64,000 nt of DNA from Longibaculum muris (GTDB lineage Bacteria > Bacillota_I > Bacilli_A > Erysipelotrichales > Coprobacillaceae): positions 245,671 to 309,670 of the forward strand of contig NZ_SMCQ01000001.1 of assembly GCF_004343035.1 (NCBI RefSeq). The letters are read 5' to 3'. Numbering within the stretch: position 1 is the stretch's first letter; the number at the start of each line of letters is the position of its first letter. Below, piece after piece: positions 17,816-39,357 of the stretch. Both the position numbers and the translations under genes were made by a program. Below the pieces are notes generated by a model, which was given only the letters and a program-made list of their open reading frames with translations, made no database searches and had not been told where the DNA came from.

Positions 17816-19360
17816 GTGAAAAGAGAATTAGTCATTGTTTTAGACTTTGGTGGGCAATACAATCAGTTGATTGCTCGTCGTGTGCGTGAATGCAATGTTT
17901 ATTGTGAGATTTATTCTTATAAGATTGATATTGAAAAAATCAAAGCTATGAATCCTAAGGGAATTATTTTAACTGGTGGACCTAGTAGTTGTTATGAAGA
18001 AAATAGTGCAACTTATTCAAAAGAATTGTTTGAATTAGGAATTCCTGTTTTAGGATTATGTTATGGGGCACAATTGATGCAACATTTATTAGGTGGGAAA
18101 GTCGAACGTGCAAGTGTAAGAGAATATGGAAAATCAGAATTAACAGTTGATAATGATTCTGTTTTATTTAAAAATGTTGCAACAAAGAGTATTTGTTGGA
18201 TGAGTCATTTTGATTATATTTCTCAAACAGCACCAGGATTTAAGATTACTGCAACAACACCTGATTGTCCTGTGGCAGCTTGTGAAAATGTAGAAAAGAA
18301 CTTATATGCGATTCAATTCCATCCTGAAGTCTTACATACTGAAGAAGGAACAAAGATGTTATCAAACTTTGTATTGAATGTTTGTAAGTGTTCTAGAGAT
18401 TGGCGTATGGATTCGTTTGTTGAAGAACAAATTCAAGCAATTAGAGAAAAAGTTGGGACAGGAAAAGTCTTATGTGCTTTATCTGGGGGAGTTGATTCCT
18501 CTGTAGCCGCTGTTCTTCTTTCTAAAGCGATTGGGAATCAATTGACTTGTGTCTTTGTTGATCATGGTTTACTTCGTAAAAACGAAGGTGATGAAGTTGA
18601 AGCTGTTTTTGGACCTGAGGGTAACTATGATTTGAATTTCATTCGTGTGAATGCGCAACAAAGATATTATGAAAAGTTAAAAGGTGTTGAAGAACCAGAA
18701 GCCAAAAGAAAGATTATTGGTGAAGAATTTATTCGTGTCTTTGAAGAAGAAGCAAAGAAGATTGGTGCAGTCGATTTCTTAGTTCAAGGAACAATTTATC
18801 CTGATGTTGTTGAAAGTGGCTTGGGTGGCGAATCTGCAGTGATTAAGTCACATCATAATGTGGGTGGATTACCTGATTGTGTTGATTTCAAAGAAATTAT
18901 TGAACCATTAAGAGATTTATTCAAGGATGAAGTTCGTAAGGTTGGGTTGGAATTAGGTATTCCTGAATATTTAGTCTTTAGACAACCTTTCCCAGGACCA
19001 GGACTTGGTATTCGTATTATTGGTGAAGTGACTGAAGAAAAAGTAAAGATTGTTCAAGATGCTGATTTCATCTATAGAGAAGAAATTGCTAAGGCTGGAC
19101 TTGATCGCTCAATTGGACAATATTTTGCAGCACTTACAAATATGCGTTCTGTTGGTGTTATGGGTGATGAGAGAACCTATGATTATGCAGTTGTTTTACG
19201 TGCAGTGAATACAATTGATTTTATGACAGCTGAGTCTGCAGAGATTCCTTATGAAGTTTTAAATAAGGTGATGTCTCGTATTATTAATGAGGTTCGTGGT
19301 GTGAATAGGGTATTCTATGATATTACGTCTAAACCACCAGGGACAATAGAATTTGAATAG
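17816..19360 (+). CDS. guaA: GMP synthase (glutamine-hydrolysing)
   Basis: Enzyme of 514 aa that converts XMP to GMP. The class I glutaminase domain is intact ([14 protein letters not shown] with the catalytic Cys; FHPEV with the catalytic His and Glu). The ATP-pyrophosphatase P-loop is [14 protein letters not shown] near residue 224, and the dimerisation domain ends KPPGTIEFE. The start is GTG at 17816 behind AAGGAGGG. A second, glutaminase-less paralogue lies at 60640. Confidence 0.96.
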
Positions 19361-20735: not shown

Positions 20736-21953
20736 ATGAACAAAACAATATGTGAATTATTTGCCGGTGTAGGAGGATTTAGATTAGGTTTTGAAAGAGC
20801 CGATTCTGGATGGGAAACTACATGGTTTTCACAATGGGAACCAGGGGCGAGAACACAATGGGCAAATCAGTGCTATGTGCAACATTTTGGAGATTCACCA
20901 GATATAAATGGAGAATTTCATACTTGTGAAGATATTTCTACTGTAGATAAAAACGCTATTCCAGATCATACCCTTTTGGTTGGGGGATTTCCTTGCCAAG
21001 ATTATTCAGTAGCTCAATCGTTATCTAGCTCAAAAGGTATCGAAGGAAAAAAAGGAGTTCTATGGTGGCAAATTAGAGATACCATCGAAGCAAAGAGACC
21101 AGCATTTTGTATTTTTGAAAATGTTGATAGATTATTAAAATCTCCAGCAAAGCAACGTGGGAGAGATTTTGGTATCATCTTAAGTTGTTTGAATGCCTTA
21201 GGATATTCTGCTGAGTGGAGAGTAATCAATGCCGCTGAATATGGTGCGGCACAACGCAGAAGAAGAGTATTTATTTTTGCATATAGAAATGATACGGTTT
21301 ATGCTGACTCAGTAAAAGAAATGGACGAATTATCACTGATCAATTCAGATGGATTCATGGCGAAATCATTTCCGATTGAACAAGTAGAGAATTGTTTTGA
21401 AGGAACTTTGATGAATGATTTATTAGAAATGACAGATAAATTTTCATTTGATTTTAAATCAGCTGGATTGATGAGAAACGGAAAAATATATACAAATAAT
21501 GTCGTTCCAGTAATGGAGACACCTATATTATTGGGAGATATCTTACAGTCTAATGTTGACGAAAGTTTTTATATAACAAACGAAAAAATGAGCAAATGGA
21601 CATATTTGAAAGGTGCGAAAAAAATAAATCGTATATCAAAGACTGGACATGAGTATGTCTTTTCAGAGGGGCCTATTGCTTTTCCAGATTCATGGGATAA
21701 ACCAGGTAGAACCATGCTTACAAGCGAATCTACTTTGAATAGAAGTACGCATGTTGTTTCAGATCCTGGAACAGGAGGATTGAGAACATTGACTCCAATC
21801 GAAGCAGAACGTTTACAAGGTTTCGATGACGATTGGACTAATAGTGGAATGCCAAATAGGATGAGATTTTTTTGCATGGGGAATGCTTTAGTAGTACCAA
21901 TGATAACAAGAATGGCAAAAGTTTTAGATGGTATTATAGTAAATGAAAAATAG
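20736..21953 (+). CDS. DNA (cytosine-5) methyltransferase, M.Sau3AI-like
   Basis: C5-cytosine methyltransferase of 405 aa. Motif I is ELFAGVGGFRLGFE (residues 7-20), motif IV GGFPCQDYSVAQ with catalytic Cys87, motif VI FENVDRLLKSP, and motif VIII YGAAQRRRRVFIF; motifs IX-X are at the end (LTPIEAERLQGFDDDWT; MGNALVVP). Blocks between motifs (GKKGVLWWQIRDTIE; LKSPAKQRGRDF; SKTGHEYVFSEG) agree closely with my memory of M.Sau3AI, so GATC (GATm5C) is the probable target. The adjacent Sau3AI-type nuclease supports this. AGGAGG precedes the ATG. Confidence 0.93.
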   Translation: MNKTICELFAGVGGFRLGFERADSGWETTWFSQWEPGARTQWANQCYVQHFGDSPDINGEFHTCEDISTVDKNAIPDHTLLVGGFPCQDYSVAQSLSSSKGIEGKKGVLWWQIRDTIEAKRPAFCIFENVDRLLKSPAKQRGRDFGIILSCLNALGYSAEWRVINAAEYGAAQRRRRVFIFAYRNDTVYADSVKEMDELSLINSDGFMAKSFPIEQVENCFEGTLMNDLLEMTDKFSFDFKSAGLMRNGKIYTNNVVPVMETPILLGDILQSNVDESFYITNEKMSKWTYLKGAKKINRISKTGHEYVFSEGPIAFPDSWDKPGRTMLTSESTLNRSTHVVSDPGTGGLRTLTPIEAERLQGFDDDWTNSGMPNRMRFFCMGNALVVPMITRMAKVLDGIIVNEK

Positions 21954-21969: not shown

Positions 21970-23532
21970 ATGGTGATAATTGTGCCTAATCATATTTTTG
22001 AAAAAAAGGATGTTATACAGCGGCTTGAACATTATAAAGGTAAGAAATTTGAGGATATTGATAATAAAGGAATGTTTAAGCATGTACAAGACTTTAATTT
22101 ACAAAAAGGTATTGCAGGCGCGGTTGTAGAGCAATGTATATTTGGTTATGACGCAGATACTAAACAAGAGGCGGATCTTATAATTATAGATGGTAGTGAA
22201 TCAATAAAGACTGAGTTAAAAACCACAGGAATGCTGATTGAAACAGAGCCAAAAAGACATTATGTTGCAAAAGAGCCGATGTCAATTACCGCAGTTGGGG
22301 TCTATGATATTTCAGAACAAGAGTTTTATTCTTCCCACTTTTGGGAAAAGTTAGAAAATATGCTGATTGTTTATTATCATTATGCGTCAGACCATGCTGT
22401 TACACCATTTGAATACAAAAATTTTCCTCTTGTTGGATATGAATTTCATAAATTTTCGGAAGATGATATAGAAGTATTGAAAAATGATTGGGAAGCTGTT
22501 CGAAACCTATGCGCAGAGATTACAAGTCATTATCCAGGAATCAGAAATAGGGAATGGAAAGCAGCTGTTAAAGAGGAATATATTAATGTTCATGGGCAAT
22601 TAAGAAAAGTATTAAGTTATATAAATTTAGCTCCGAAGTTTCCACCTAGGTTCAGATTAAAAAAACCTTTGGTTACAACTATCATTGCAAATCATTTTGG
22701 TTATAACCTTGAGCAAATACCTGGTAATTACACAACAATATCAGATATTGATAAAAAATGCCAAGAATTAACTTCAAAATATAAAGGGAGAACAATTTCA
22801 TCGTTAGCTCAAGAATTTGGAATACCACATATTCGAGATAAAGAGAATAAATCTGTTACTGAACAAATAATAGTTGCAATGTTTGGTGGAAAATCTGAAA
22901 AATTGAATCAAATTAGTTTATTTGAGAAGTTTGGTTTAATAGGAAAAACAGTAGTTACCACTGCTAAAGGTGGCCGCACTGAAGATATGAAATTGTTTAA
23001 AATTGATTTTAATGAAGTTACACGATTAGAAGTGAGTGATGATCTTGAATGTAGAAAATATCAATTTGAAGATTCTGATTTATATACTTATTTTGCAGAT
23101 CATGAATTTTTATGTATTATATTTGAAGAACCTAAACCTAAGGTTATTGAGGATTCATCAGGAATGTTTGTTAATATTACTCATAAGTTAGGTGATAACA
23201 GATTTATTGGGTTTAAGAGACTTGTGTTTAGCGATAAATTTATTGATGTAAAAGTAAGAAAAGTATGGGAGGATACTCGTACTAAGATTCTGACTAAAAC
23301 TTTAATTGATGTTGTGCAGAGAAGAAAAGATGGATCCGTTATAATAAATAAGAATGGTGAAATCAGTTCTGTGCCAAATTTTATTAAAAGCAAAGATAAT
23401 GATGTTTTTCTTAGGGGGTCAGGAAAAGATTCTTCCTGTAAAACAGAATGCGTCAATGGAATTAAAATGTTGCCTCAGTATGTATGGATTAAAGGAACTT
23501 CAATTGTGAAAGAACTCAATAAATTAGATTAG
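21970..23532 (+). CDS. Sau3AI-like type II restriction endonuclease (MutH fold)
   Basis: Endonuclease of 520 aa. The N-terminal MutH/Sau3AI domain has Glu54 (AGAVVEQCIFG), Asp69 (EADLIIIDG) and the ExK pair Glu82-Lys84 (KTELKTTGM). The C-terminal half repeats the fold without a clear catalytic set, as in Sau3AI where it acts as a regulatory, second DNA-binding domain (KVRKVWEDTRTKI; FLRGSG; QYVWIKGTSIVKEL). Expected to cut unmethylated GATC. Start is uncertain: ATG at 21970 touches the AAAGG, GTG at 21982 has better spacing. It lies 16 bases after the methyltransferase. Confidence 0.88.
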   Translation: MVIIVPNHIFEKKDVIQRLEHYKGKKFEDIDNKGMFKHVQDFNLQKGIAGAVVEQCIFGYDADTKQEADLIIIDGSESIKTELKTTGMLIETEPKRHYVAKEPMSITAVGVYDISEQEFYSSHFWEKLENMLIVYYHYASDHAVTPFEYKNFPLVGYEFHKFSEDDIEVLKNDWEAVRNLCAEITSHYPGIRNREWKAAVKEEYINVHGQLRKVLSYINLAPKFPPRFRLKKPLVTTIIANHFGYNLEQIPGNYTTISDIDKKCQELTSKYKGRTISSLAQEFGIPHIRDKENKSVTEQIIVAMFGGKSEKLNQISLFEKFGLIGKTVVTTAKGGRTEDMKLFKIDFNEVTRLEVSDDLECRKYQFEDSDLYTYFADHEFLCIIFEEPKPKVIEDSSGMFVNITHKLGDNRFIGFKRLVFSDKFIDVKVRKVWEDTRTKILTKTLIDVVQRRKDGSVIINKNGEISSVPNFIKSKDNDVFLRGSGKDSSCKTECVNGIKMLPQYVWIKGTSIVKELNKLD

Positions 23533-23560: not shown

Positions 23561-24022
23561 ATGAAAAAATATGTTTCTTTCGAAGAAATATGCAATCACA
23601 AAGAGAATTTTAAAAATTCAAACTTAAAATTGATTCCTGGAATGATTTATAAAGGTGGTAATAAAGGTAATCATAGTTCTGAAGTATTATCAAAATTAAT
23701 GAAGGTTGGTAATACTGGAGGAATGCGTCCAAAAAATAATAAATATAAAAATACAGCTTATATTGTTTTGAATATTACACATGATAACAACGCATGGGAA
23801 GATTATATTGATTATAAAAAAGAAGAAGTTATTTATTATGGGGATAATGCAAAAAGTGAAGATTTATTTGAAACAAAACATAAGGGAAATAGAAATTTAA
23901 AATTTTTATTTGATAATATAGACAATCCTGATAATCAGTTCCCTTTATTTCTTTTTGAGAGGGATGCAGAATGTGTTAATAGAGATTTTAAATATATTGG
24001 GTTAGTAATCCCGAGTATATAA
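23561..24022 (+). CDS. ScoMcrA-like SRA domain protein (5' part of a stop-interrupted SRA-HNH gene)
   Basis: The 153-aa product fits the ScoMcrA-like SRA domain: GMIYKGGNKGNHSSEVLSKL, then TGGMRPKN, then EEVIYYGDN and TKHKGNRNLKFLFDNI with PLFLFERD. Such domains read modified bases (5-methylcytosine or phosphorothioate) in type IV-like restriction. The frame ends in TAA at 24020 and the HNH part continues in exactly the same frame 9 bases later, so this is probably one gene with a nonsense mutation. AAGGAG precedes the ATG. Confidence 0.75.
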   Translation: MKKYVSFEEICNHKENFKNSNLKLIPGMIYKGGNKGNHSSEVLSKLMKVGNTGGMRPKNNKYKNTAYIVLNITHDNNAWEDYIDYKKEEVIYYGDNAKSEDLFETKHKGNRNLKFLFDNIDNPDNQFPLFLFERDAECVNRDFKYIGLVIPSI

Positions 24023-24031
24023 TCTGATGGA

Positions 24032-24595
24032 TTGAGCATTGTAAAAGAAAATAATAATGGAAAAGTTATTGAAAATTTTAAGGCAAGATTAAAACTGATT
24101 CAATGTGAAGTAGATTTTAGGTGGATTAATGATTTACTTGAAGGTATAAAACCATTAGAAAGTGAATTTTGCCCTTTGCCATGGGAAACTACAATTTTAA
24201 ATTTTGGAAATGGATGCATAAATGAGTTGATTGCTAGTGGAGAAGAAAACTGGCAACAAGAGTCAATTGTTGAAAGTATAGCTGAAGGGAAGAAAAAGAA
24301 GATTTATACCACAAAATATGAAAGAAATCCTAAACTTAGAAAAAAGGCTATTGAAATACATGGTACAAAATGTGAAATTTGCGGTTTTGATTTTGAAAAG
24401 ACATATGGAGAAGTTGGAAAAGGGTTTATTGAAGTTCATCATATAAACCCCTTATTCGAGTATGCTGAAGAGATGGAAGTAAATCCTAAATCAGATTTGA
24501 TATGTGTATGTTCCAATTGCCATAGAATGTTGCATAGAAGGCGTGATAAAGTTATGGATATTAATGATTTAATCAAATTAGTTAATAGTAATTAA
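24032..24595 (+). CDS. HNH endonuclease (3' part of the SRA-HNH gene)
   Basis: The HNH domain occupies residues about 105-180: CEICGFDFEKTYGEVGKGFIEVHH, INPLFE, then CVCSNCHRMLHRR, giving two CxxC zinc pairs and the His-Asn-His catalytic set. The N-terminal segment (KVIENFKARLKLIQCEVDFRWINDLLEG) matches the linker that follows the SRA domain in intact fused proteins. The nominal start TTG at 24032 has no clear ribosome binding site. Either this half is silent, is made by read-through, or reinitiates after the upstream stop. Confidence 0.75.
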   Translation: MSIVKENNNGKVIENFKARLKLIQCEVDFRWINDLLEGIKPLESEFCPLPWETTILNFGNGCINELIASGEENWQQESIVESIAEGKKKKIYTTKYERNPKLRKKAIEIHGTKCEICGFDFEKTYGEVGKGFIEVHHINPLFEYAEEMEVNPKSDLICVCSNCHRMLHRRRDKVMDINDLIKLVNSN

Positions 24596-24650: not shown

Positions 24651-24699
24651 GTTGCTTAGATAATTACAATTAGGTAATCATCTAAGCAACGTTTTTTTA
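24651..24699 (+). terminator. Terminator after the SRA-HNH gene
   Basis: GTTGCTTAGAT pairs with ATCTAAGCAAC around an inner ATTAC/GTAAT stem, followed by seven Ts. Confidence 0.85.
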
Positions 24700-24735
24700 T
24701 ATTTAGACAATATATGAAAAATATTGTCTAAATAT
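24699..24735. promoter_or_regulatory. Perfect 15-bp inverted repeat upstream of the GHKL-ATPase operon
   Basis: ATATTTAGACAATAT (24699-24713) and ATATTGTCTAAATAT (24721-24735) are perfect complements with a 7-nt loop and no T run. It ends two bases before a TTGACA -35 box, so it is placed as an operator for the operon that follows. Confidence 0.55.
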
Positions 24736-24736
24736 A

Positions 24737-24765
24737 TTGACAAATATAAATATATTATGTATATA
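24737..24765 (+). promoter_or_regulatory. Promoter of the GHKL-ATPase operon
   Basis: Consensus TTGACA (24737-24742) and TATATA (24760-24765) with a 17-bp spacer; first gene starts at 24817. Confidence 0.55.
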
Positions 24766-24816
24766 TAAATTGTAGATATTTAATATATTATTATATTTGT
24801 AATGAGAGGTAAAAGT

Positions 24817-25041
24817 ATGGCATCTGAAAAAGAGAAAATTGAACGTTTTAAAAGAGTTGCAGAGAATAGAACTAATAAAATAATTGATCAAATTCGTCTT
24901 CTTGGCAATTGTGCTAATAAATCGAACTATGAGTACGATGAGGAAGATGTAAAAAAGATTTTTTCTGCCATTGAAGCTGAGTTAAAGGAAACAAAATCAA
25001 AATATCAAACAAAAGCCAGAAGTAAAAAATTCGAACTATAA
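24817..25041 (+). CDS. Small charged protein, first gene of the GHKL-ATPase operon
   Basis: Protein of 74 aa starting at the ATG after GAGAGG (an in-frame ATG at 24802 overlaps that site). It is highly charged and predicted helical or coiled (EKEKIERFKRVAENRTNKII; KKIFSAIEAELKETKSKY). I do not recognise the family. It ends 12 bases before the ATPase start and has been kept directly in front of it, which suggests a small subunit or regulator. Confidence 0.6.
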   Translation: MASEKEKIERFKRVAENRTNKIIDQIRLLGNCANKSNYEYDEEDVKKIFSAIEAELKETKSKYQTKARSKKFEL

Positions 25042-25053
25042 GGGGGCGTGATT

Positions 25054-26970
25054 ATGAAAAAGTGGAGATTTTTATCAAATCAAAATTCTACAATAGTAGG
25101 GATAAATGATGCTGGAATAGAAACGTTTACTGCGAATATGAATAAATCTTTAGTTAGAGAAATTATACAAAATTCATTAGATGCAGTAATAGATGGGTGC
25201 ACGGATCCAGTAGAGGTAGAGTTTGTGCAGTTTGATATTTTAAGAGAAAGTATTCCAGATGTAGATGAACTTCAAAGAGCAATTAACAAATGTAAAAAAA
25301 GTAATCAGAATGAACCTGATGCTTATAAATTTTTTCTTAATGCAGAAAATATCTTATCTCAACCTAAAATAAGAGTTTTGAGGATTAGTGATCACAAAAC
25401 TAAAGGACTCGAAGGAACTGATACATGTGAAAAAGGAATTAGTTGGAGTAGATTGGTTAAGGAAAGTGGATCATCTAATAAAGGGCAGGGATCAGGAGGT
25501 AGTTTTGGAATTGGAAAAGCAGCTGCATTTGCATGTTCTGATTTGAGAACTGTATTCTATTCATCTAAAGATGCGCGAGGTTTGTTGTCAAATTTTGGCG
25601 TTGCAAAACTAGTATCATTTGAGGATAAAAATCCTGGTGACTGGACTACAGGTATAGGATACTATTCAGAGGATAATAGATTTGTAGCAATTAATGAGCT
25701 AACAAAATTTGATATTAATTATAATAGAGTTGATAGTGGTACTGATATTTATATTTTGGGCATGCATGATACAGATGATTTTGAAAATACTTTTACAAAA
25801 GCTGTATTGTTAGATTTTTTGGTTTCTTTAGTAAATAAAAAACTTGTGGTAAGAATACAAAATCAAATAATTGATTCAACTACATTATCAAAATATATGA
25901 ATAAATTAAATCCATATGAAAGTGAAGAAATCAAGGATTTATTAGAATATTATCATCTATTAACATCACATGATCCAAAGATAAAAAAAATCAAACTTGA
26001 TTCAGCAAAATATGGAAAACAATTTGGATTTAAAGATGGTGAATGTACTTTATATTTAAAAGAAGATGAGGGACTAAATCGGAAAATTATGATTACAAGA
26101 AGAGCAGGAATGAGAATTCTTGAGCAAAATAGGATAAGTGGTAGTATAGATTTTACTGGGGTATTGATTATCGAAGGTAATCAGATGAATGAATCATTTA
26201 AAAAGATGGAAGTCCCTTCACATGATGCTTGGGAACCTGGACGAGTTCGTGGTGAAGAAAAGAAATATAATAATATATTACTTGGACTCCGCAAGTATTT
26301 AAGAGAAACTGTAAAGGATTTATTCGGTAAAGTTACTACAAATTCAATGGATGCTTTGGGAGCGAGTGATTTTCTTCCTGATAAATCAACAGATGAAGAA
26401 GAAAAATCTTTGAAAAAAGATGAAATGAGTACAAGAATTAAAAGTCTTGAAGGTAAGGTAATAGAACCATCTAAAGAAAGAACAAGAAGCATTGATAAGG
26501 TAGAAGTAGATTCTGATCCTGAAGGGGAAACTGGAAGTGGTAAAGGTGAAGAACCTGGACCGGTAAAGCCAACACCTCCTCATCCTGGACCGGTTATTGG
26601 AGTAAATCCAAGAAATCAAGGAGGTTTGAAAAATAAAGAAGGAAATGAAAAAAATTTAAAGAAAATACAAGTAAAAAAAAGGTTGATGTGTACAAATGCG
26701 AAAAGTGGAATTTATCATCTAAGTTTTATTGTTCCTTCTAATACATCAGAAGCCAAACTAGAGTTTACACTTTCAGGAGAGCAAAGTGATTTCGAATTAC
26801 CTATACTTAATGCAAAAGTATTAAATGGAAATGCGAAAGTGACTTCTATTAAAGGTAACAAGGTTTTTTTATCTGGTTTAGAAAAAGGAAAAAATTTAAA
26901 AACTGAAATACAAGTTGAATTTGATAAATATTGTATGATGGAGGTGGATTACTATGCGTGTAAAAAGTAG
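25054..26970 (+). CDS. GHKL-fold ATPase, MutL/MORC-like, of a putative defence operon
   Basis: Protein of 638 aa. The Bergerat ATP-binding motifs are visible: N-box EIIQNSLDA (Glu36-Ala44), motif II around VLRISDHKTKGLEG (about 107-120) and the glycine-rich lid GSGGSFGIGKAAAF (about 149-162). A transducer-like region follows (about 220-420). A Pro/Gly/Glu-rich linker (about 485-530) leads to a C-terminal beta-rich domain. GHKL ATPases of this MORC/MutL type are known next to restriction systems and vsr genes. AGGGGG sets the start at 25054 rather than GTG 25048. The 3' end overlaps the next gene by 17 bases. Confidence 0.75.
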   Translation: MKKWRFLSNQNSTIVGINDAGIETFTANMNKSLVREIIQNSLDAVIDGCTDPVEVEFVQFDILRESIPDVDELQRAINKCKKSNQNEPDAYKFFLNAENILSQPKIRVLRISDHKTKGLEGTDTCEKGISWSRLVKESGSSNKGQGSGGSFGIGKAAAFACSDLRTVFYSSKDARGLLSNFGVAKLVSFEDKNPGDWTTGIGYYSEDNRFVAINELTKFDINYNRVDSGTDIYILGMHDTDDFENTFTKAVLLDFLVSLVNKKLVVRIQNQIIDSTTLSKYMNKLNPYESEEIKDLLEYYHLLTSHDPKIKKIKLDSAKYGKQFGFKDGECTLYLKEDEGLNRKIMITRRAGMRILEQNRISGSIDFTGVLIIEGNQMNESFKKMEVPSHDAWEPGRVRGEEKKYNNILLGLRKYLRETVKDLFGKVTTNSMDALGASDFLPDKSTDEEEKSLKKDEMSTRIKSLEGKVIEPSKERTRSIDKVEVDSDPEGETGSGKGEEPGPVKPTPPHPGPVIGVNPRNQGGLKNKEGNEKNLKKIQVKKRLMCTNAKSGIYHLSFIVPSNTSEAKLEFTLSGEQSDFELPILNAKVLNGNAKVTSIKGNKVFLSGLEKGKNLKTEIQVEFDKYCMMEVDYYACKK

Positions 26971-27811
26971 ATTATCACCATATCCAATACTTGATAATTA
27001 TGGAGACGATTATGTAAATTCTTCATTTGATGCAGAGTATGAGATGACTACACAATTTAGTGAAATATATGCGAAAATTAGATTTCATTTAGAGAATAAA
27101 GAAATTGAAGAATTAATAAAGAATGAAAAAGCACAATATTTAGTTCATGTTGAATGTCCATCTACATGTTTTCGTATGAAATTTAGTTCGACTGAGAATG
27201 AGATAGAATTCAAATTAAGTTCTGTTAATCTAGCAAAAATATTAGAAATAAGAACATTTATTGTTTTAACTCAAGATATAAAAAATTTTAAATCAGTTGA
27301 TTTTCATCCGGATTATTTAGGAGAAACATTTAATCTTTTTAAACATCAGATAATTGCGATTGGTACAGGAAAAAATTATATTCTCAATAAAGATGATAGA
27401 GATTTAGAATCGTTACCTTCAGTAATACAGATAATGAAAACGAGTGATAAAAAAGGAAGTTTAACTGTAAATACAGATAGTGATAATTATATAATGGTTG
27501 GTCTATCTGAAGATGTATATGAATTATACGCTAGACTAGGTAAGAATACATATAAATCAACAGCTTTTAGCTTAGTATTACTTCCAGCTTTAATGATTGT
27601 TTTACAAAGAATGCATGCAAATAAAGATGATGAAGATTACAAGTCAAGGCATTGGTTTCAAGTCATTAATTCAATTTTAGAAAACAATAAACAAAAATTG
27701 GATGATATTACTATAGAAAATGATACTTTGTTGATGGTGTGTCAGTCTATATTTGCAGATCCAATTTCCAGAAGTTTTAAGGAATTGGATTCTTGTAGTG
27801 AAAGGATGTGA
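26954..27811 (+). CDS. Uncharacterised protein, partner of the GHKL ATPase
   Basis: Protein of 285 aa, with GGAGGTGG before the ATG inside the end of the ATPase gene. Its middle part is beta-rich (YLVHVECPSTCFRMKFSSTENEIEFKL), then a mixed helical C-terminus (STAFSLVLLPALMIVLQRM; HWFQVINSILENNKQKLDD). No nuclease, helicase or membrane motif can be seen. Tight overlap with both neighbours argues that it acts in one complex with them. Confidence 0.6.
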   Translation: MRVKSRLSPYPILDNYGDDYVNSSFDAEYEMTTQFSEIYAKIRFHLENKEIEELIKNEKAQYLVHVECPSTCFRMKFSSTENEIEFKLSSVNLAKILEIRTFIVLTQDIKNFKSVDFHPDYLGETFNLFKHQIIAIGTGKNYILNKDDRDLESLPSVIQIMKTSDKKGSLTVNTDSDNYIMVGLSEDVYELYARLGKNTYKSTAFSLVLLPALMIVLQRMHANKDDEDYKSRHWFQVINSILENNKQKLDDITIENDTLLMVCQSIFADPISRSFKELDSCSERM

Positions 27812-27816
27812 TTTTA

Positions 27817-28566
27817 GTGAGATTATTATATTTGGATCAATCAGCAATTGATGATTTAAAAATGAATTATTCAATATACGAAAATCATTTTTTTGACGAA
27901 ACTAATGAATGGTTTTTAAAAAAGTTCAATGAAAAAGGATGGATTAAAGAATCTAAAATTCAATGTAAAGATTTTGAATTGAATTATGATGAAGATTTTA
28001 ATGTTTCGGATAGGAAAAATATAGAAATACTTTACGAAGCATTGAATGATCTAAATCCTGCCAATGCATTGGATGAACGATTATGGGCTGGAATGTTGTT
28101 TGGTCAATTTTGGAAGTATGTAAAATATAGAAGAGCGGAGGCGTTTAAATCTGGAGATGAAAGAGAGATACTGAATTCCTTTCTTTTCCTTCGTGGTACA
28201 AAAAGGAGTTGTTTTATAAATTGTTTATCTAGATTATGGTGGGCTGGTTACTTACTATATGACAACAAGAATTCATATCACTATAAGGCGATTGATTTAA
28301 TCACAGAAAGTGCTTTTTCTTCAAATATAATGCTATTGTCATCAAGTAATTTTATGGCAAATAAATCTTTGGCATTAGGGGTAATGGATTGCATAAGTTC
28401 TCGTAAAGAAAAAGGAGAAAAAATTGGAAGATATCATTTTGTTGAAGCCAATAAATATTTGAATTGCTTAGGTGGAATAACTTTGCTGGATACAATGACA
28501 AGAGAAGAAGTTCAGAGTATTGTTAATGAAAGATTAAATAAAGTATATGGAAATATTCGAATTTGA
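27817..28566 (+). CDS. Uncharacterised protein (possibly DUF6339), partner of the GHKL ATPase
   Basis: Protein of 249 aa from GTG at 27817; the alternative GTG at 27808 overlaps the upstream stop but sits only one base from AAAGGA. A central conserved-looking block LNPANALDERLWAGMLFGQFWKYVKYRRAE is followed by RGTKRSCFINCLSRLWWAGYLLYD. The DUF6339 name comes from memory and was not checked. It is helical and soluble, with no catalytic signature seen. Last gene of the ATPase operon. Confidence 0.55.
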   Translation: MRLLYLDQSAIDDLKMNYSIYENHFFDETNEWFLKKFNEKGWIKESKIQCKDFELNYDEDFNVSDRKNIEILYEALNDLNPANALDERLWAGMLFGQFWKYVKYRRAEAFKSGDEREILNSFLFLRGTKRSCFINCLSRLWWAGYLLYDNKNSYHYKAIDLITESAFSSNIMLLSSSNFMANKSLALGVMDCISSRKEKGEKIGRYHFVEANKYLNCLGGITLLDTMTREEVQSIVNERLNKVYGNIRI

Positions 28567-28709: not shown

Positions 28710-29144
28710 ATGAAGCATCAAAAGTTAAATACTACACAAGAAGTTTCTAAACGTATGAAAGCATTGAGTATTAAAAAAAGTAAGGTAGAATCTGTTCTTG
28801 CGAAAGCATTATGGAAAAGGGGATATAGATATCGGTTAAATTATAAAAAATTGCCGGGAACACCGGATATAGTGTTAGTTAAATATAGAATTGCAATTTT
28901 TGTTGATGGTGAATTTTGGCATGGTAAAGATTTTAATATAAATAAGGAAAAATTAAGAAATAATAAGTCATACTGGATAGAAAAGATAGAAGAAAATATT
29001 CAACGCGATATAAAGAATGATAATTTACTACGTCAAATGGATTGGATTCCTCTTCACTTTTGGAGCAATGATGTAAAAAAATATTTAAATTATTGTTTAG
29101 ATGAAGTAGAAGATGTTATCTACGAGATTAGTTGCAGAGAGTAA
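28710..29144 (+). CDS. vsr: Very short patch repair endonuclease Vsr
   Basis: Nuclease of 144 aa that nicks next to T:G mismatches arising by deamination of 5-methylcytosine. Family blocks are all present: TTQEVSKRMKALSIKKSKVE, LWKRGYRYRLNYKKLPGTPDIVL with the catalytic Asp, IAIFVDGEFWHGKDF, and the C-terminal WIPLHFWSNDV. The ATG has no Shine-Dalgarno; TATAAT at 28696-28701 lies only 8 bp upstream, so the mRNA may be leaderless. Biologically it fits the nearby GATC C5-methyltransferase. Confidence 0.92.
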   Translation: MKHQKLNTTQEVSKRMKALSIKKSKVESVLAKALWKRGYRYRLNYKKLPGTPDIVLVKYRIAIFVDGEFWHGKDFNINKEKLRNNKSYWIEKIEENIQRDIKNDNLLRQMDWIPLHFWSNDVKKYLNYCLDEVEDVIYEISCRE

Positions 29145-29232: not shown

Positions 29233-29802
29233 ATTACGAAAAATAATTATAAAACATTGGAGACATCAGTAAGACGAAGTTATGCAAGTGTTGTGTGGTC
29301 GCATAAGATTCAAGAAAAACAATGTGATATTTATACAAAGCAATATAGATATTTAGAAACACTAAATATTATTGCTGCGTCTACGACATCGGTTGGAATA
29401 TTATCATTAATATTTACTAATCAATTTTGGATTAAAATAATATCTGCAATTTTATCATTTGTTACAATATTTGTGAGTGCTTATTTTAAATCGTTTGATT
29501 TACATCAGATGACTTTAAGTAATAAAACTACAGCAAATAAACTGTTATGTATTCGAGACCAATTATATTTAATCATTCTAAAAATACACATGGAATGTGA
29601 TTCTGCAGATGATTTACTAATACAATACGAGAAAACACTTGAAGAATTAGATAAAATATATCAATCTGCTCCGAATACTACAGATAAGGCGGTAAAGTTG
29701 GCAAGAAAAGCTTTAAATGTAAGTAAAGATAATACTTTTACAGAAGATGAAATAAATGCATTTCTTCCTGATGAACTGATAATGGAGGGAAAATATGAGT
29801 AA
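29233..29802 (+). CDS. SLATT-domain 2TM effector of a CBASS-like system
   Basis: Membrane protein of about 189 aa with two adjacent hydrophobic segments (LNIIAASTTSVGILSLIF and IISAILSFVTIFVSAYF, about residues 47-90), then a helical cytoplasmic tail. This is the SLATT architecture, thought to form pores or leak the membrane when a nucleotide signal is made. The start is unusual: AAGGTGGTGA is placed to serve ATT at 29233 (protein begins TKNNYKTLE), while the first standard codon is TTG at 29257 without a ribosome binding site. It overlaps the CD-NTase gene by 8 bases. Confidence 0.75.
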   Translation: MTKNNYKTLETSVRRSYASVVWSHKIQEKQCDIYTKQYRYLETLNIIAASTTSVGILSLIFTNQFWIKIISAILSFVTIFVSAYFKSFDLHQMTLSNKTTANKLLCIRDQLYLIILKIHMECDSADDLLIQYEKTLEELDKIYQSAPNTTDKAVKLARKALNVSKDNTFTEDEINAFLPDELIMEGKYE

Positions 29803-30610
29803 TTTAGTTTGTAAGCATGGAGAAATAATAGCTTTAGATATTAGAAGTAAGATTTCGCAAAGATACCATACTGTCACAAAAGCAATCAATAAAGAATTTT
29901 GGAATAGTTATAGTGACACTGCTAACAGTTTATATGTTGGATCTTATGGAAGGGGTACAGCAATAGATACAAGTGATTTAGATATTTTAGTGTGTCTCCC
30001 AGAATCAGAATACTATCGTTACGATGCGATGAAAGGTAATGGTCAATCAAGATTGTTGCAAAGTGTTAAGAATGCAATATTAAATGTATATCCGAGAAGT
30101 GATGTACGAGCTGATGGACAAGTAGTAAAAATTAACTTTTCAGATGGAATGAAGTTTGAGATATTACCCGCATTTAAGGTGTTTGATTGGTTCGGTAATT
30201 GGACAGGAACATATAAATATCCTGATACAAATATGGGTGGAAATTGGAAATCTACAAATCCTAAAGCTGAACAAGATGCTATGGCAAGCAAAAATAAGAG
30301 TAGTAATGGTTTGTTATATGATACTTGTAAACATATTCGTAGAATAAGAGATGACCATTTTAGCAGTTACCATTTATCGGGAATTGTGATTGATAGTTTT
30401 GTTTATAATGCTATTGGAGGATGGCGATGGTCTGAACCGGGAAGTACTTCTTCTGCAACAATAGGTTCATATGAGCAGGTCTTGATTGATTATTTTAATA
30501 GCCACCTTTTTTGGGGGCTTCCTATAAATGCTCCAGGTAGCAATGACTTAGTTTCTACTGATACGAGTATTGAATGTTTGAAAAAAGTACTTGATTATAT
30601 GACTAAATAA
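29795..30610 (+). CDS. CD-NTase (SMODS-type cyclic oligonucleotide synthase)
   Basis: Nucleotidyltransferase of 271 aa. The pol-beta signature GSYGRGT (residues 49-55) is followed by the catalytic pair in DTSDLDILV (Asp61, Asp63); a third acidic residue is Glu122 in KFEILPAF. The region WSEPGSTSS and the helical C-terminus fit DncV/CdnB-like enzymes. With the SLATT protein it forms a minimal two-gene CBASS-like unit: infection sensing, signal synthesis, membrane damage. No Cap2/Cap3 or HORMA/TRIP13 genes are present, so it would be a type I CBASS. GGAGGG precedes the ATG. Confidence 0.85.
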   Translation: MSNLVCKHGEIIALDIRSKISQRYHTVTKAINKEFWNSYSDTANSLYVGSYGRGTAIDTSDLDILVCLPESEYYRYDAMKGNGQSRLLQSVKNAILNVYPRSDVRADGQVVKINFSDGMKFEILPAFKVFDWFGNWTGTYKYPDTNMGGNWKSTNPKAEQDAMASKNKSSNGLLYDTCKHIRRIRDDHFSSYHLSGIVIDSFVYNAIGGWRWSEPGSTSSATIGSYEQVLIDYFNSHLFWGLPINAPGSNDLVSTDTSIECLKKVLDYMTK

Positions 30611-31093: not shown

Positions 31094-32275
31094 TTATTTG
31101 ACTTCTCTGTGGTAGATGGCAGTGTGCTGATTGCTGGTATAATTTGCAATGCTTTGTGAAGCTGGTTTATATTGCAAAATGCTAGTCAATTTATTAGCAA
31201 CTTCAAGATTAGTGTTGGGATATAAATGTCCATATGTTCCCAGCGTGGTCTGTATCTTTTCATGTCCCAGACGTTCCTTGAGTAGCAACGGGTTTTCTCC
31301 CATACTGATAAGCAGCGAAGCATGGGAATGGCGTAACGCATGAATTTTAATACGATGGACACCAGCTAATTTCGCAAGTTTTCCAATGCTCTAGGTAGGG
31401 TGGTTTTACTGGTAGGCGTACCATTATAACTTAAAATCAGTTTGCATTTTGGGAGGATTTTTTGTTGCACTTCTTTCCATACTTTTAGTTCATTGATAGT
31501 ATCAGCATCAATGTATAGGGTGCGGATGCTTGCCTGTGTTTTAGGCTCAACAAATTTGTAATCAGTCATGGTTTTGTAATACAGAGTTTTTGTAATACTT
31601 AACATTCCTGTTTCAAAGTCTATATCACTCCATTGCAGAGCAGCGGCTTCACCAATACGCATACCTGTCATAAATAATAGCCAAAATGACATAAATAGGT
31701 AGTGTTCGTAGTAATCACCTTTATAAAGCAAAGAAATTACTTTTTGAAATTCTTCCAACGTCCAAAAGTCAACCTTAGTCTTTTTACTCTTGATATTTCC
31801 TATCATTCGTGAGGGGTTCTTTTTTGCTAAACCGAGAACAATCGCTCTATCAAATGCAATAGAGAGCATACCTTGTACTATGCGAATGTAGTTGGGACTG
31901 AATTCTTTTGTTATTTTCAGTTGCCAGTTTTGAACATTGATAGGCTCTATCTCATCTGTAGCCATTTTATAAAAATACTTAAAATGTTTTTTATGGTAGA
32001 ACAGCGATTTATGTATGTGCTTTCCTTGACTTGTGTTTTATACCAAGGAAGATAGGTTTCTTCAATAAATTGTTGGAAAGTCACTTTACTTTTCTAATCT
32101 GTTAATTCATCTACCGAGGTCAAAAAAAGCTTTGAATATTCTTCTTTGCTTCTTTTTTTGTTTTGAAACTGCTACGGTATTTTTGTATTTGTTTACCTGT
32201 AATCGGATCATAACCTAAATTTGCTCTAAAATAATATGTTCCGTTATTTACTTTTTTAATAGGGTCTTTTGCCAT
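31094..32275 (-). pseudogene. Tyrosine integrase of an ICE/transposon, broken by frameshifts
   Basis: Three same-strand fragments line up with one Tn916/ICE-type integrase of about 390 aa. The AP2-like N-terminus (MAKDPIKKVNNGTYYFRANLG) stops after KNIQSFF, and the SAM-like core continues in another frame (VTFQQFIEETYLPWYKTQVK). The catalytic domain (TGMRIGEAAALQWSDID) ends at LENLRN in a TAG made by loss of one base. The rest then continues in a third frame with HALRHSHASLLISMGENPLL and GHEKIQTTLGTYGHLYP. All active-site residues are still encoded, so decay is recent, but no intact protein can be made. Confidence 0.85.
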
Positions 32276-32312
32276 AATTTCACTCCTTACATAGAAATGC
32301 AAGAAGTACAAA

Positions 32313-33171: not shown

Positions 33172-33462
33172 ATGACTAAACCAACATTTACTGATGAATT
33201 TAAACAGGGAGTTGTTCAATATGTCCTTGATCACCCAGATGAATCTAAAGTATCAATTGCCAAGCGTTTTGGCATTGCTGACAGTACTATTCATAAATGG
33301 ATGAAAGATGCTGATAAAAATAATGGAACTATTGTTTCAAGAGGTTCAGGTAATTTCTCAAGTGATGAGGCTAAGGAAATTGCTCGATTAAAAAAAGAAC
33401 TTAAAGATACTCAGGATGCACTCGATGTCCTAAAAAAGGCTATTGGCATACTGGGAAAATAA
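33172..33462 (+). CDS. IS3-family transposase OrfA
   Basis: Protein of 96 aa: an N-terminal helix-turn-helix (FTDEFKQGVVQYVLDHPDESKVSIAKRFGIADSTIHKWMKDA) and a C-terminal leucine-zipper-like helix (AKEIARLKKELKDTQDALDVLKKAIGIL). It binds the IS ends and is joined to OrfB by a -1 frameshift near its stop (GGGAAAATAA). GCAAGAGG lies upstream of the ATG. Confidence 0.85.
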   Translation: MTKPTFTDEFKQGVVQYVLDHPDESKVSIAKRFGIADSTIHKWMKDADKNNGTIVSRGSGNFSSDEAKEIARLKKELKDTQDALDVLKKAIGILGK

Positions 33463-33948
33463 TCAAGCAGGATCTGTATTATCAGGTAAAAATCAAAAAA
33501 CAGGATGATAAAACAGCTTCCATTTCCAGTATGCTTGAAAAACTAGAATTAAGCAAATCAGGTTATTATGATTACGTTAACAGAAAACCTTCCAACCAGA
33601 AAAAAAGAAAACAAGAACTTAGCGAAAAAATAAAATCAATTCATGAGGAATCACATGAGATATATGGTGCCCCAAAAATAACTGCAAAATTAATTCAGTC
33701 AGGGATTAAAGTCAGTGAAAAATATGTAGGGAATATTATGCGAGAAATCGGTATAAAAGCACATTATATCAAGCCTTATACAATGACCACTAAAGACTGC
33801 GATTTCTCACCTAAGCTAAGAAACATCCTAAAACGTAATTTCAATCCTGAAAGACCAAATTCAGCGTGGTGTACAGATATCACATATATATGGATACAGG
33901 AAGATGGATTTGTGTATCTGACGAGTATAATGGATTTATATTCAAGAA

Positions 33949-35119
33949 AATAAATCCTCAAAGAAATGTTTTTAAAACCTAAATAACGGTTTTTATTCAA
34001 TGTTATTGAAAACATCAACTCTTTTTATCAGATATAATATAAGTATCTAATGAAAGAGAGGTACCTTCAATGACTAACAATGACGAACTATTTCAACAAT
34101 TTATCGATGATTTTAAGAAATTAGATTTATCATCTCTTGATGAACTTTATTCTCAGTTTCATGATTTCTATCTTGAACAGGAATTTGATAAATTCTTCAA
34201 AAAAGAAATTCATGATATTCAATCACAACATATTGTTTGTCCTGATTGTGGATGTAAACACATCACAAAGGCTGGTTTTGACCAATTTGGTGATTAACGC
34301 TACAAATGTCATAATCATGACTGCAAAAGAACAACTTTCACTTTGAAAAGAAATACATTGATGTATTATAGTAAATCTTCTAAGCAACAATGGCTAATCT
34401 TCTTTGAATGTCTTTTTCATGGTGAAACCATCAAAACAACTATGGATAAAGTTGGAATCTGTGAAAATACAGTTCTTGCATGGAGACACAAGACAATGTA
34501 TTTGATTTTTAAAATGTTAGAACACGATAAGCTGGAGGGTGAAGTCGAAATGGACGAAACCCTTTTTGGCTATCATACAAAAGGTAAACTTAAGGAAATT
34601 GATGTTGAAAAGCCTAAAAAGAGAGGAATCTCAGAAGATAAAATTAGTGTAGCGTGTGCAATTGATGAAAAAGGAAAAACAATCATCAAGGTCATCAATC
34701 GAGGAAGAGCTACAAGCAAGTCATTAATAGATACATTCAATGGATATATCGATAAATCGAATTTGGTCATAAGTGATAGCTTAAGATCATATCACAAGGT
34801 ACAAAAGACATTGGGATATGATTGGATAAAGATACCTTCAGGTAAATCATCATATAAAGGCTATACGCTAGATAGAGTAAATTCATTGCATGGAAATATT
34901 AAAATGTATATAGGACATTTAAGAGGAGTAAGTGTATCTTTTCTTCAAGGATATTTATCATTATATGAATTAATACAAAGATATCCCAGATATTATCAAA
35001 GAAAATCATATAGAGATATAGTTTTAAAAATCATGACTACAGCTATGCCTTATAGAGGCAGTGATTTTGACGAGACTTTTTCTTACGTTTAACTAGAAAC
35101 ATTTCTTTGAGGATTTATT
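33949..35119 (+). mobile_element. IS1595-family element inserted into the IS3 orfB
   Basis: About 1.17 kb with perfect terminal inverted repeats: AATAAATCCTCAAAGAAATG at the left and its complement at the right. ATTCAAGAA flanks it on both sides (33940-33948 and 35120-35128), which is the target duplication (8-9 bp; the exact length is ambiguous). Confidence 0.85.
34070..35092 (+). pseudogene. IS1595-family (ISXO2-like) transposase with a nonsense codon
   Basis: One frame interrupted once. The first 75 codons hold the zinc-ribbon start (IVCPDCGCKHITKAG), then TAA at 34295-34297, and the same frame continues RYKCHNHDCKRTTFTL, GEVEMDETLFGYHTKGK (DDE Asp-Glu region), NLVISDSLRSYHKV and the C-terminal LHGNIKMYIGHLRGVS. 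Relatives have Q-R-Y-K-C here, so CAA to TAA is the likely mutation. The element can therefore move only if supplied with transposase in trans. Confidence 0.8.
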
Positions 35120-35652
35120 ATTCAAGAAAAATAATAGCCTGGAAACTAACAAGAACAATGGAGGTAGATGAAGTGTTGAAATGTCTTGAAGAAGCAAAAG
35201 CAAGGAGAAAGGCAGATAATCCAATAGTGATTCATAGTGATAGAGGTGTACAATTCACATCGAAAAAATATTATGATATGACAGTTGGAATGATCAGCAG
35301 TTATTCAAAAAAAGGGAATCCCTGGGATAACGCATGTATAGAATCATTTCATGCATTAATTAAAAGGGAATGGCTAAACAGGAAGAAAATCAATGATTAT
35401 GAAGAAGCATATCAGAAGGTGTTTGAATATATAGAAGGGTTTTATAACACAGTAAGAATTCATTCACACTGCAATTACCAATCACCAAACAAATATGAAA
35501 AAAACTTCAATTCGAACAAATTAAATTAAAATTTCTTACATTTTAGTTGTCCGAAATCTTGACATAGTACCAAAAGTATTGCAAGATATGATTTTGATAA
35601 GGCAGAAGATATTTATCATCAATTAGAATTATTATATCCAAAGCGCTATGCA

Positions 35653-37646: not shown

Positions 37647-39357
37647 ATTTGCATTCCAATATGATTAGATTATGAATTTGGTGGAGTTGTTAAGGGATTA
37701 TTCAGTATGATTAATTTGCATTCCAATACGGTTAGATTATGAATGTTGCTTCTGCTTTAGCACTAAACGATGTCCCTGAACCATTTACATTCCAATATGG
37801 TTAGATTATGAATTACTTGTAATTAAAATTAGTACTTGCTATTATTAGCATTTACATTCCAATATGGTTAGATTATGAATAAAACCGTTATGATTGGTTT
37901 AGAGTTCTTTGTGATAAATTTACATTCCAATATGGTTAGATTATGAATTAAAGAATTAGCGTGGAAGTCTAGATTTCATCATGAATTTACATTCCAATAT
38001 GGTTAGATTATGAATGAACATGCCATTTATGTCGCACACAACTTTATCGTAATTTACATTCCAATATGGTTAGATTATGAATTTCTGATGAAATGCCTGG
38101 TTTAATTGGTTCTTTTGCAATTTACATTCCAATATGGTTAGATTATGAATAGAAAATGAATTACATGGACACATACAATGCAATTACATTTACAATCCAA
38201 TATGGTTAGATTATGAATTCATAAAATATATCCGTATCATACATGTCAAACATATTTACATTCCAATATGGTTAGATTATGAATACCATCAATTCGCAAT
38301 TTCTTGTTTCTTAATTTGCAATTTACATTCCAATATGGTTAGATTATGAATGCAATGGTTGATAGAGGAGCGATGACTCCTAATCAAATTTACATTCCAA
38401 TATGGTTAGATTATGAATCTTTTGCGTGGAACTAGTCCAATTGAAAGTAATGGATTTACATTCCAATATGGTTAGATTATGAATCATTTTCTTGCAATAA
38501 AAACATATAAAACAAAACCAATTTACATTCCAATATGGTTAGATTATGAATGCTGGAATAGTTCTTCTAATGCTGGCGGTTTCTATATTTACATTCCAAT
38601 ATGGTTAGATTATGAATATTACACTTGCAAACAACAGAAAACTGCTCTCTCAAATTTACATTCCAATATGGTTAGATTATGAATCATAATTAACAGCAGA
38701 TAAAGTCTTTCCGCTACCCTGATTTACATTCCAATATGGTTAGATTATGAATTGTTATTCATATTCCTGATATAAAAGAGCCTTTTTCATTTACATTCCA
38801 ATATGGTTAGATTATGAATTGTTAGACAGGCTCTTACATTAAATAGGCATGGTAAATTTACATTCCAATATGGTTAGATTATGAATGATACTGCTAATTA
38901 TGTTATTTCTACTTGTAAAGAAAAATTTACATTCCAATATGGTTAGATTATGAATTGTAGGATGTAATAAAAGAAAAATTAGAACCATCCAAATTTACAT
39001 TCCAATATGGTTAGATTATGAATCTATCATAAATTTTCAATTCAATAGAACCATCTTTTATTTACATTCCAATATGGTTAGATTATGAATGGTTCTGTTG
39101 TTTTTTGGAGTGGTGTTCATTTCGCTATTTACATTCCAATATGGTTAGATTATGAATTTAGTGCATTAGTATTACTTGTACTGATTTCAATTATTTACAT
39201 TCCAATATGGTTAGATTATGAATTTATAAAGAAAGGAGTGTTGATCTAAATGTTTTCTTTATTTACATTCCAATATGGTTAGATTATGAATATTAAGTAT
39301 CTTATCTTGCCGGAGTTTCAAAAGAAATTTACATTCCAATATGGTTAGATTATGAAT
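37647..39357 (-). CRISPR. CRISPR array 1 (26 repeats, 25 spacers)
   Basis: Twenty-six copies of a 31-nt repeat, spaced by 35-38 nt unique spacers. On the plus strand the repeat starts ATTTACATTCCAATATGGTT and ends AGATTATGAAT. The two leftmost copies are degenerate (ATTTGC; ATGATTAG and ATACGG variants), marking the old end. The right end abuts a sequence homologous to the leader of array 2. The array is therefore read on the minus strand, giving crRNAs with the 3' repeat end GGAATGTAAAT, the same handle as known type I-B repeats. Confidence 0.97.

What the first reader, a model, noticed from the sequence alone, without database searches (positions are those of the whole stretch)
24699..28566. 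GHKL (MutL/MORC-like) ATPase operon with three unassigned partners: a candidate defence system
Seen: four tightly packed genes (74, 638, 285 and about 249 aa), overlapping or nearly so, behind a consensus promoter and a perfect 15-bp inverted repeat, between a modification-dependent nuclease and vsr/CBASS genes. The big protein has Bergerat-fold motifs and a unique beta-rich tail. Known: GHKL ATPases related to MORC/MutL occur with restriction and vsr genes. Inference: a nucleic-acid-sensing ATPase complex; no nuclease motif is visible in the partners, so the effector activity would be new or supplied by Vsr or the nearby nucleases.
Basis: partly seen in the sequence, partly recalled or inferred. 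Interest (0 to 1): 0.72.

Follow-up and report, generated by a model that had tools for sequence, protein, structure and literature searches.

The report
R-M-linked GHKL ATPase cassette (PDC-M33)
Four adjacent bacterial genes form a widespread, mobile, probably antiviral cassette: a three-protein complex built around a MutL/MORC-like ATPase, plus a small leader protein, usually found next to restriction-modification genes; databases already list it as a candidate, but its function has apparently not been tested.

Summary
The four genes are real and intact: S (74 aa), A (638), B (285) and C (249-252). A-B-C is a conserved unit. In 118 loci, A was found in 117, B in 113 and C in 104, always in the order A-B-C, and the three diverge together (Mantel r 0.87-0.90). 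S is present in about half. It is a looser companion that carries its own palindromic promoter element. PADLOC-DB already lists A, B and C as candidate PDC-M33. A has the GHKL motifs and the ExxxH signature that Iyer et al. (2008) gave for 'paraMORC2' ATPases of restriction-modification loci, but no Pfam GHKL model detects it. C5-methyltransferases lie near 42% of loci, about 25 times the background. B is predicted to be an Ig/FN3-like sandwich plus a helical part. C (DUF6339) has a confident helical fold without a PDB match, and sometimes gains DNA-binding domains. No nuclease was found in A, B or C. Best reading: a nuclease-less, ATP-driven DNA-engaging defence complex that works beside R-M systems. 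It is a known candidate, not a new class. The freshest observation is that S also heads operons of other GHKL-type ATPases.

The parts
24698..24736 (.). Perfect 16-bp inverted repeat (7-nt loop) directly upstream of the -35 box; candidate operator of the S-A-B-C operon
   Evidence: an ATATTTTSAAAATAT-like palindrome (>=13/15) is present upstream of 61% of A-adjacent and 67% of non-adjacent S genes, against 1.9% for A genes without S and 1.5% of random windows
24737..24765 (+). Promoter-like: TTGACA - 17 nt - TATATA
24817..25041 (+). S: 74-aa small protein; first gene of the operon; candidate autoregulator or small partner of GHKL ATPases
   Evidence: alignment A4 (F11, R18, N31, N34, Y38, Y40 invariant); 62 of 118 loci; also heads operons of other GHKL-type ATPases
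25054..26970 (+). A: 638-aa GHKL-type ATPase, paraMORC2-like; PADLOC PDC-M33A
   Evidence: PADLOC PDLC04582 E 2.1e-202; invariant E36, Q39, N40, S41, D43, D113, T116, G118, G149, G152, G154, K155, G229, R349, H390 in 65 homologues
25156..25185 (+). N-box of A: R35-E-I-I-Q-N-S-L-D-A44 (general base E36, Mg-binding N40)
   Evidence: aligns with the MutL N-box KELVENSIDA
25387..25518 (+). G1 box (S112-D-H-K-T-K-G-L119) and glycine lid (GGSFGIGK, ending at K155) of A
   Evidence: (local match to the lid of another GHKL protein)
26209..26223 (+). E386-V-P-S-H390: ExxxH motif, the hallmark given for paraMORC2
   Evidence: H390 invariant, E386 in at least 90%; definition in PMC2292703
26954..27811 (+). 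B: 285 aa; PDC-M33B; predicted Ig/FN3-like beta-sandwich (about 11-146) plus helical C-terminal part
   Evidence: PDLC04583 E 2.6e-90; AlphaFold2 pLDDT 90.6; PDB comparison
27808..28566 (+). C: 249-252 aa; DUF6339; PDC-M33C; mainly helical fold without a clear PDB match
   Evidence: PF19866 E 1.4e-46; PDLC04584 E 4.1e-122; AlphaFold2 pLDDT 94.7, pTM 0.91
20736..21953 (+). Context: C5-cytosine DNA methyltransferase
   Evidence: PF00145 E 5.1e-61
21970..23532 (+). Context: MutH/Sau3AI-type restriction endonuclease
   Evidence: PF02976 E 3.3e-15; NF040973 E 7.4e-47, below its cut-off
23561..24595 (+). Context: AspBHI-N-like reader (23561-24022) and HNH nuclease (24032-24595)
28710..29144 (+). Context: Vsr endonuclease
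   Evidence: TIGR00632 E 8.4e-35, above cut-off

Best explanation
S-A-B-C is a horizontally mobile, restriction-modification-linked defence cassette (PADLOC candidate PDC-M33). A is a GHKL ATPase of the paraMORC2 kind. By analogy with MutL and MORC, ATP binding should close an A dimer around or on DNA, and hydrolysis should reset it. B, an Ig-like sandwich with a helical part, would bridge A to C. C, a DUF6339 helical adaptor, would bring the complex to its target DNA, sometimes through an added DNA-binding domain. None of the three shows a nuclease, so the most likely effect on incoming DNA is mechanical: entrapment or compaction that blocks its expression or replication, or exposes it to the neighbouring restriction enzymes, while host DNA is spared through the mark set by the linked methyltransferase. 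S with its palindrome would control expression. Shown here: gene set, order and co-divergence, intact ATPase motifs, R-M linkage, domain predictions, and the S-linked operator-like palindrome. Inferred: complex formation, DNA binding by A, target choice, mechanical effect, defence.
For: A, B and C match PDC-M33A/B/C (E 2e-202, 3e-90, 4e-122). A-B-C order is conserved in about 100 loci, including plasmids of Priestia, Planococcus, Lactococcus, Ligilactobacillus, Deinococcus, Arthrobacter and Paenarthrobacter. A, B and C diverge together (Mantel r 0.90, 0.88, 0.87) while S and dcm follow A less closely (0.53, 0.58). N-box, G1, lid, G3 and ExxxH residues are invariant or nearly so in 65 diverse A proteins. 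The A profile matches a second ExxxH family found as dcm-S-GHKL (hhalign probability 67%, E 5e-5, 272 columns). A C5-MTase lies in the flanks of 50 of 118 loci against about 1.2 per Mb in background genomes. Other sampled neighbours include N6-MTases, GmrSD, ResIII, TIR, DndB, Menshen NsnA and PD-T4-2. Some C proteins carry DNA-binding extensions: DpnI_C wHTH E 7.5e-8, RpiR-type HTH E 4.6e-4, the latter below its cut-off. No nuclease family or fold was seen in A, B or C. VcSduA, a paraMORC3-type protein, defends against phages and needs its GHKL ATPase (PMC12137116).
Against: No phage phenotype is known to me. No Pfam GHKL model reaches E 0.01 for any of 65 A proteins, and similarity to MutL is confined to the N-box. 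The A fold was not predicted. Absence of a recognisable nuclease is not absence of one: C has conserved polar residues (N71, E90, R91, R108) in a fold with no known relative. Contact between A, B and C was not tested.
Confidence: 0.45

Rival explanations
1. A-B-C is a MutL-like helper of the neighbouring nucleases: the ATPase complex loads and stimulates the MutH/Sau3AI-type enzyme and/or Vsr, as MutL does for MutH and Vsr, and has no effect alone.
For: The window holds the cast of the E. coli pathway: C5-MTase, MutH-fold nuclease, Vsr and a GHKL ATPase. The same set follows C in Oribacterium L061 and much of it occurs in Priestia L045 and in L064/L065. Iyer et al. proposed that paraMORCs loop DNA between mark and cut site.
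Against: Vsr was detected in 15 of 118 loci and MutH/Sau3AI-type enzymes in about 5. Other loci sit beside TIR, GmrSD, DndB or housekeeping genes. A follows B and C (r about 0.9) far more closely than dcm (0.58).
Confidence: 0.22
2. A-B-C has its own unrecognised effector, most likely C or the helical half of B, released or activated by A after infection (abortive infection).
For: C is a confident fold with no PDB relative found and near-invariant N71, E90, R91, W93, R108, W144, W145, D228. A distant third gene follows A-B in L039-L042. Lactococcus carries the cassette near AbiG genes.
Against: No catalytic motif is recognisable, and C's extensions are DNA-binding, which suits a targeting subunit better than a toxin. 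B has no recognisable nuclease motif.
Confidence: 0.25
3. The cassette regulates R-M expression or DNA repair rather than defending; co-location reflects that role.
For: S carries a conserved palindrome at the promoter, and paraMORC-linked two-component-like genes have been proposed for R-M loci (PMC8011034).
Against: A-B-C occurs without dcm in many loci and moves on plasmids as a unit. PF19191/PF19192 are not found in A, B or C.
Confidence: 0.08

Closest known systems
PADLOC-DB candidate PDC-M33 (A, B, C)
   Same: All three proteins match full length, in the same operon.
   Different: It is a candidate entry; no paper on it was found. S did not match any PDC-M33 model, and the operator is not part of it.
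paraMORC2 GHKL ATPases (Iyer, Abhiman and Aravind 2008, PMC2292703)
   Same: GHKL motifs, ExxxH in the C-terminal part of the predicted S5 region, R-M/Vsr/C5-MTase neighbourhood, mostly Gram-positive.
   Different: The text read does not describe B, C or S. No SFII helicase was seen next to the cassette in the window.
paraMORC3 / Shedu with GHKL domain (VcSduA, PMC12137116)
   Same: GHKL ATPase used in phage defence.
   Different: VcSduA has a fused PD-(D/E)xK nuclease (DUF4263); A has none.
MutL-MutH-Vsr-Dcm of E. coli
   Same: Same types of protein gathered in the window's locus.
   Different: A matches MutL only at the N-box; B and C have no counterpart; the nucleases are not constant partners.
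RptR repressor of type I R-M islands (PMC12255303)
   Same: Small first gene of a defence operon with palindromes in its own promoter.
   Different: phmmer with S found no related chain in the PDB copy (whether RptR 9R2Z is in that copy was not checked); RptR binds TAGCTA, the S-linked element is a longer AT palindrome.

Membership tests
PADLOC PDC-M33 | Homologues of M33A, M33B and M33C together in one operon | tested here: met
   all three full length; order
GHKL superfamily | N-box, G1, lid and G3 motifs, conserved | tested here: met
   E36, N40, D113, G118, G149, G152, G154, K155, G229 invariant in 65 proteins
GHKL superfamily | Significant match to a GHKL profile or fold | tested here: inconclusive
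   No Pfam HATPase hit in 65 members at E <= 0.01; window protein E 0.25; indirect link through a second ExxxH family and an S-linked 735-aa protein with HATPase_c_3 E 1.3e-4; fold of A not predicted
[quoted passage not shown]
   E386..H390, H invariant; definition
paraMORC2 | S5-fold domain after the GHKL domain | not tested
paraMORC2 | Linkage to R-M genes (C5-MTase, Vsr, RE-fold nucleases) | tested here: met
MORC proper | GhXhhpXXRhl motif in the S5 domain | tested here: not met
   By eye, the closest stretch is GVLIIEGNQMN (about residue 369), with Q in place of the R; the R is absent from the consensus
MutL | Full-length MutL homology including C-terminal domain | tested here: not met
   hhalign finds 17 columns at the N-box only
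paraMORC3/Shedu | C-terminal PD-(D/E)xK nuclease (DUF4263) | tested here: not met
   No such domain by Pfam in the window protein or 64 homologues
HEF_HK / Response_reg_2 system | PF19191 and PF19192 domains | tested here: not met
Anti-phage defence system | Protection against phage | not testable with these tools
   needs plating assays

The most novel reading that the evidence does not exclude
S is the founder of an undescribed family of small leader proteins that, with their own palindromic operator, head operons of several unrelated GHKL ATPases (paraMORC2-type A, a second ExxxH family beside dcm, sacsin-like and HATPase_c_3 types); and A-B-C defends without cutting DNA, as a prokaryotic MORC that traps and silences incoming DNA.
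Probability: 0.18. Interest if true: 0.78.

Novelty: new member of a known kind. Interest (0 to 1): 0.45.

Why it matters
MORC ATPases silence transposons in plants and animals and are thought to descend from ATPases of bacterial restriction loci, yet what those bacterial proteins do is largely untested. This cassette is compact, complete in the window, has a close relative in Oribacterium, and is ready for a phage test. If it protects without a nuclease, it would show that GHKL ATPases can stop foreign DNA by mechanical means and would give the MORC silencing machinery a bacterial model. DUF6339 would gain a role, and S could mark further GHKL defence operons.

Tried and rejected
Single-protein scans of genome contigs and viral contigs with A found no relative; alignment-guided scans did. 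PDB profile searches with A gave nothing at E <= 1, and with B, C and S only chance-level hits. No PDB chain fits C (Foldseek best E 1.4, best Z 5.6 over 64 residues) and no viral model does (best E 2.1); I do not claim a new fold from that. The B hits are a common Ig/FN3 arrangement (Z about 8) and say nothing of function. Idea that A's tail is homologous to B: no profile match. Idea that S is RptR: no sequence support. Idea that the window palindrome recurs elsewhere in the window as a regulon: at chance. Attachment repeats between guaA and the integrase remnant: none convincing. HHalign of A against single GHKL proteins gave only motif-sized local matches, barely above unrelated proteins; two of the 25 random 'negatives' in that run were A homologues themselves.
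Full report
The window encodes four complete, tightly packed genes: S (24817-25041, 74 aa), A (25054-26970, 638 aa), B (26954-27811, 285 aa) and C (27808-28566, 249-252 aa). Upstream is a perfect 16-bp inverted repeat (24698-24736), directly followed by TTGACA and, 17 nt on, TATATA. The general promoter scan is at chance over this AT-rich region, so the promoter rests on position and on the recurrence described below.

What the proteins are. A, B and C match the PADLOC-DB candidate PDC-M33A/B/C full length (E 2.1e-202, 2.6e-90, 4.1e-122). C is DUF6339 (PF19866, E 1.4e-46). A, B and S have no significant Pfam or NCBIfam match. No paper in the library mentions PDC-M33 or DUF6339. So the cassette is listed as a candidate, apparently untested.

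A as a GHKL ATPase. In 65 diverse homologues the residues that make the GHKL ATP site are invariant: E36 and N40 in RExxQNSxDA, D113, T116 and G118 in SDxxTxGL, G149, G152, G154 and K155 in GGSxGxGK, and G229. The S5-like part has R349 and an ExxxH motif (E386, H390). Iyer et al. (2008; [quoted passage not shown] The relation to classical GHKL proteins is remote: no Pfam GHKL model finds any of the 65, and MutL aligns only at the N-box. A second family found here, lying as dcm-S-GHKL and also bearing ExxxH (IEDKVH), matches A over 272 columns (hhalign probability 67%, E 5e-5). I therefore take A to be a GHKL ATPase of the paraMORC2 kind, on motif evidence; its fold was not predicted.

Conservation of the set. 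A was found in 22 of 392 Bacillota genomes, in 21 plasmids and in 80 further genome loci. In 118 loci gathered (a few of them the same locus reached twice), A is in 117, B in 113, C in 104 and S in 62, with A-B-C always in that order and mostly overlapping. Some of the missing genes are cut off by contig ends. Four loci scored as lacking C (L039-L042) have a third gene of 245-252 aa in its place, which aligns weakly with C along its whole length. Pairwise identities of A, B and C rise and fall together (Mantel r 0.90, 0.88, 0.87), whereas S and the neighbouring dcm follow A less closely (0.53, 0.58). A-B-C is thus the unit. The closest relative, 69% identical in A, is in Oribacterium, while genomes of the window's own family searched lack A; the Oribacterium copy too is followed by Vsr, a MutH-type nuclease and dcm. 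This points to horizontal transfer together with its neighbours. Some records are metagenome bins, so their organism names are uncertain.

Neighbourhood. A C5-methyltransferase is found in the flanks of 50 of 118 loci and Vsr in 15. In 100 background genomes I count 138 C5-MTase matches in roughly 115 Mb, that is about 1.2 per Mb, or 0.02 per locus of about 14 kb; the enrichment is about 25-fold, though loci are not independent. Loci without dcm often sit beside other defence genes: D12 and other N6-MTases, GmrSD, ResIII, TIR, DndB, Menshen NsnA, PD-T4-2. At least one (L136) has a housekeeping gene (queuosine synthesis) directly upstream. No single nuclease is a constant partner.

Partners. 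AlphaFold2 gives B at pLDDT 90.6: residues 11-146 form an Ig/FN3-like sandwich (best Z 8.1 over 100 residues), the rest is a strand-and-helix part not tested on its own. C is predicted at pLDDT 94.7, pTM 0.91, mainly helical, with no convincing PDB or viral match. Neither shows a nuclease. C differs between loci by its C-terminal extensions: a DpnI-type winged helix (L027, E 7.5e-8), an RpiR-type HTH (L069, E 4.6e-4, below the curated cut-off), and others without a match (L102, L130). This is what a targeting subunit with exchangeable DNA readers would look like. C keeps near-invariant N71, E90, R91, R108, so a hidden active site is not excluded.

S and its operator. S is a small protein with invariant F11, R18, N31, N34, Y38 and Y40. 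Upstream of it lies an AT palindrome of the type ATATTTTSAAAATAT, often touching TTGACA. At 13 of 15 positions or better it occurs before 61% of S genes next to A and 67% of S genes elsewhere in the same loci, but before only 1.9% of A genes that lack S and in 1.5% of random windows. The motif was drawn from these same sequences, so the absolute enrichment is optimistic; the contrast between A with S and A without S is large enough to stand. S co-occurs with dcm (37 of 61 loci with S against 11 of 51 without; Fisher p 4.6e-5). S also stands first in operons of other ATPases: the second ExxxH family (L186, L187, L196), 615-621 aa proteins in Alphaproteobacteria, two of which weakly match the sacsin N-terminal ATP-binding domain (E 0.001 and 3.5e-4, below the curated cut-off), and a 735-aa protein weakly matching HATPase_c_3 (E 1.3e-4, just below cut-off). 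In other genomes S has neighbours that are not GHKL by motif. It is most simply an autoregulator or small partner of such operons; a functional analogue exists in RptR (PMC12255303), without sequence kinship in phmmer.

How it may work. MutL and MORC use ATP-dependent dimer closure of the GHKL module to clamp, loop or compact DNA (established knowledge; Iyer et al.; MORC compaction papers listed). VcSduA shows that a GHKL ATPase can be essential to phage defence (PMC12137116). With no nuclease of its own, no constant nuclease partner, a tight A-B-C unit and DNA-reader modules on some C proteins, the economical model is an ATP-driven DNA-engaging complex that hinders unmarked DNA directly and cooperates with whatever R-M system is at hand. 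I put this at 0.45; a MutL-like helper of the linked nucleases at 0.22; a hidden effector in B or C at 0.25.

Verdict. The finding is real and well described, but the cassette is a known, apparently untested candidate (PDC-M33) of a family predicted in 2008. What is added here is the A-B-C core with S as a separate regulatory-like module, the paraMORC2 signature, fold predictions for B and C, DNA-binding extensions of C, and S at the head of several GHKL-type operons.

Noticed in passing
window 24698-24736; upstream of S in L083, L094, L098, L099, L101, L116, L124 and others: Palindromes upstream of S share a TTTT-S-AAAA-like core but have arms of very different length (up to 24 bp) and sequence, each nearly perfect. 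Why the arms stay palindromic while their sequence drifts is not explained.
   Followed up: partly
L186, L187, L196 (S at 7136, 7643, 6557): A conserved operon dcm - S - 767-776 aa GHKL/ExxxH protein - 254-269 aa protein without Pfam match: a second paraMORC2-like cassette with its own partner.
   Followed up: partly
L229 4534-6609, L231 4486-6592, L232 4495-6574: In Agrobacterium, Dinoroseobacter and Rhizobium plasmids S precedes a 615-621 aa protein; two of these weakly match the sacsin N-terminal ATP-binding domain.
   Followed up: partly
window 38000-39400 and 51030-55200, genes 42885-50587: Two CRISPR arrays (about 20 and about 60 repeats, repeat sequences related but in opposite orientation) flank genes that look like a type I-B cas set; spacers were not examined.
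   Followed up: no
window 29257-30610: CBASS-like pair: SLATT_4 membrane effector (181 aa) and CD-NTase (271 aa). The same pair follows C in L030, so the cassette and this CBASS may travel together.
   Followed up: no
window 17816-19360 and 60640-61941: Two guaA-like genes (GMP synthase); the second encodes only 433 aa. The defence island follows the first, and a broken tyrosine recombinase lies at 31094-32311.
   Followed up: no
window 23561-24595: AspBHI N-terminal reader domain and HNH nuclease are on separate neighbouring ORFs, possibly a split modification-dependent restriction enzyme.
   Followed up: no
window 33172-35529: An IS3-type transposase gene (33172-33953 and 35107-35529) looks interrupted by an IS1595-type element (34070-35092).
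   Followed up: no
L047 5920-11466: A group II intron (ltrA, 8501-9883) sits inside gene B of a Ligilactobacillus salivarius plasmid copy, and A is also broken there: a decaying copy.
   Followed up: no
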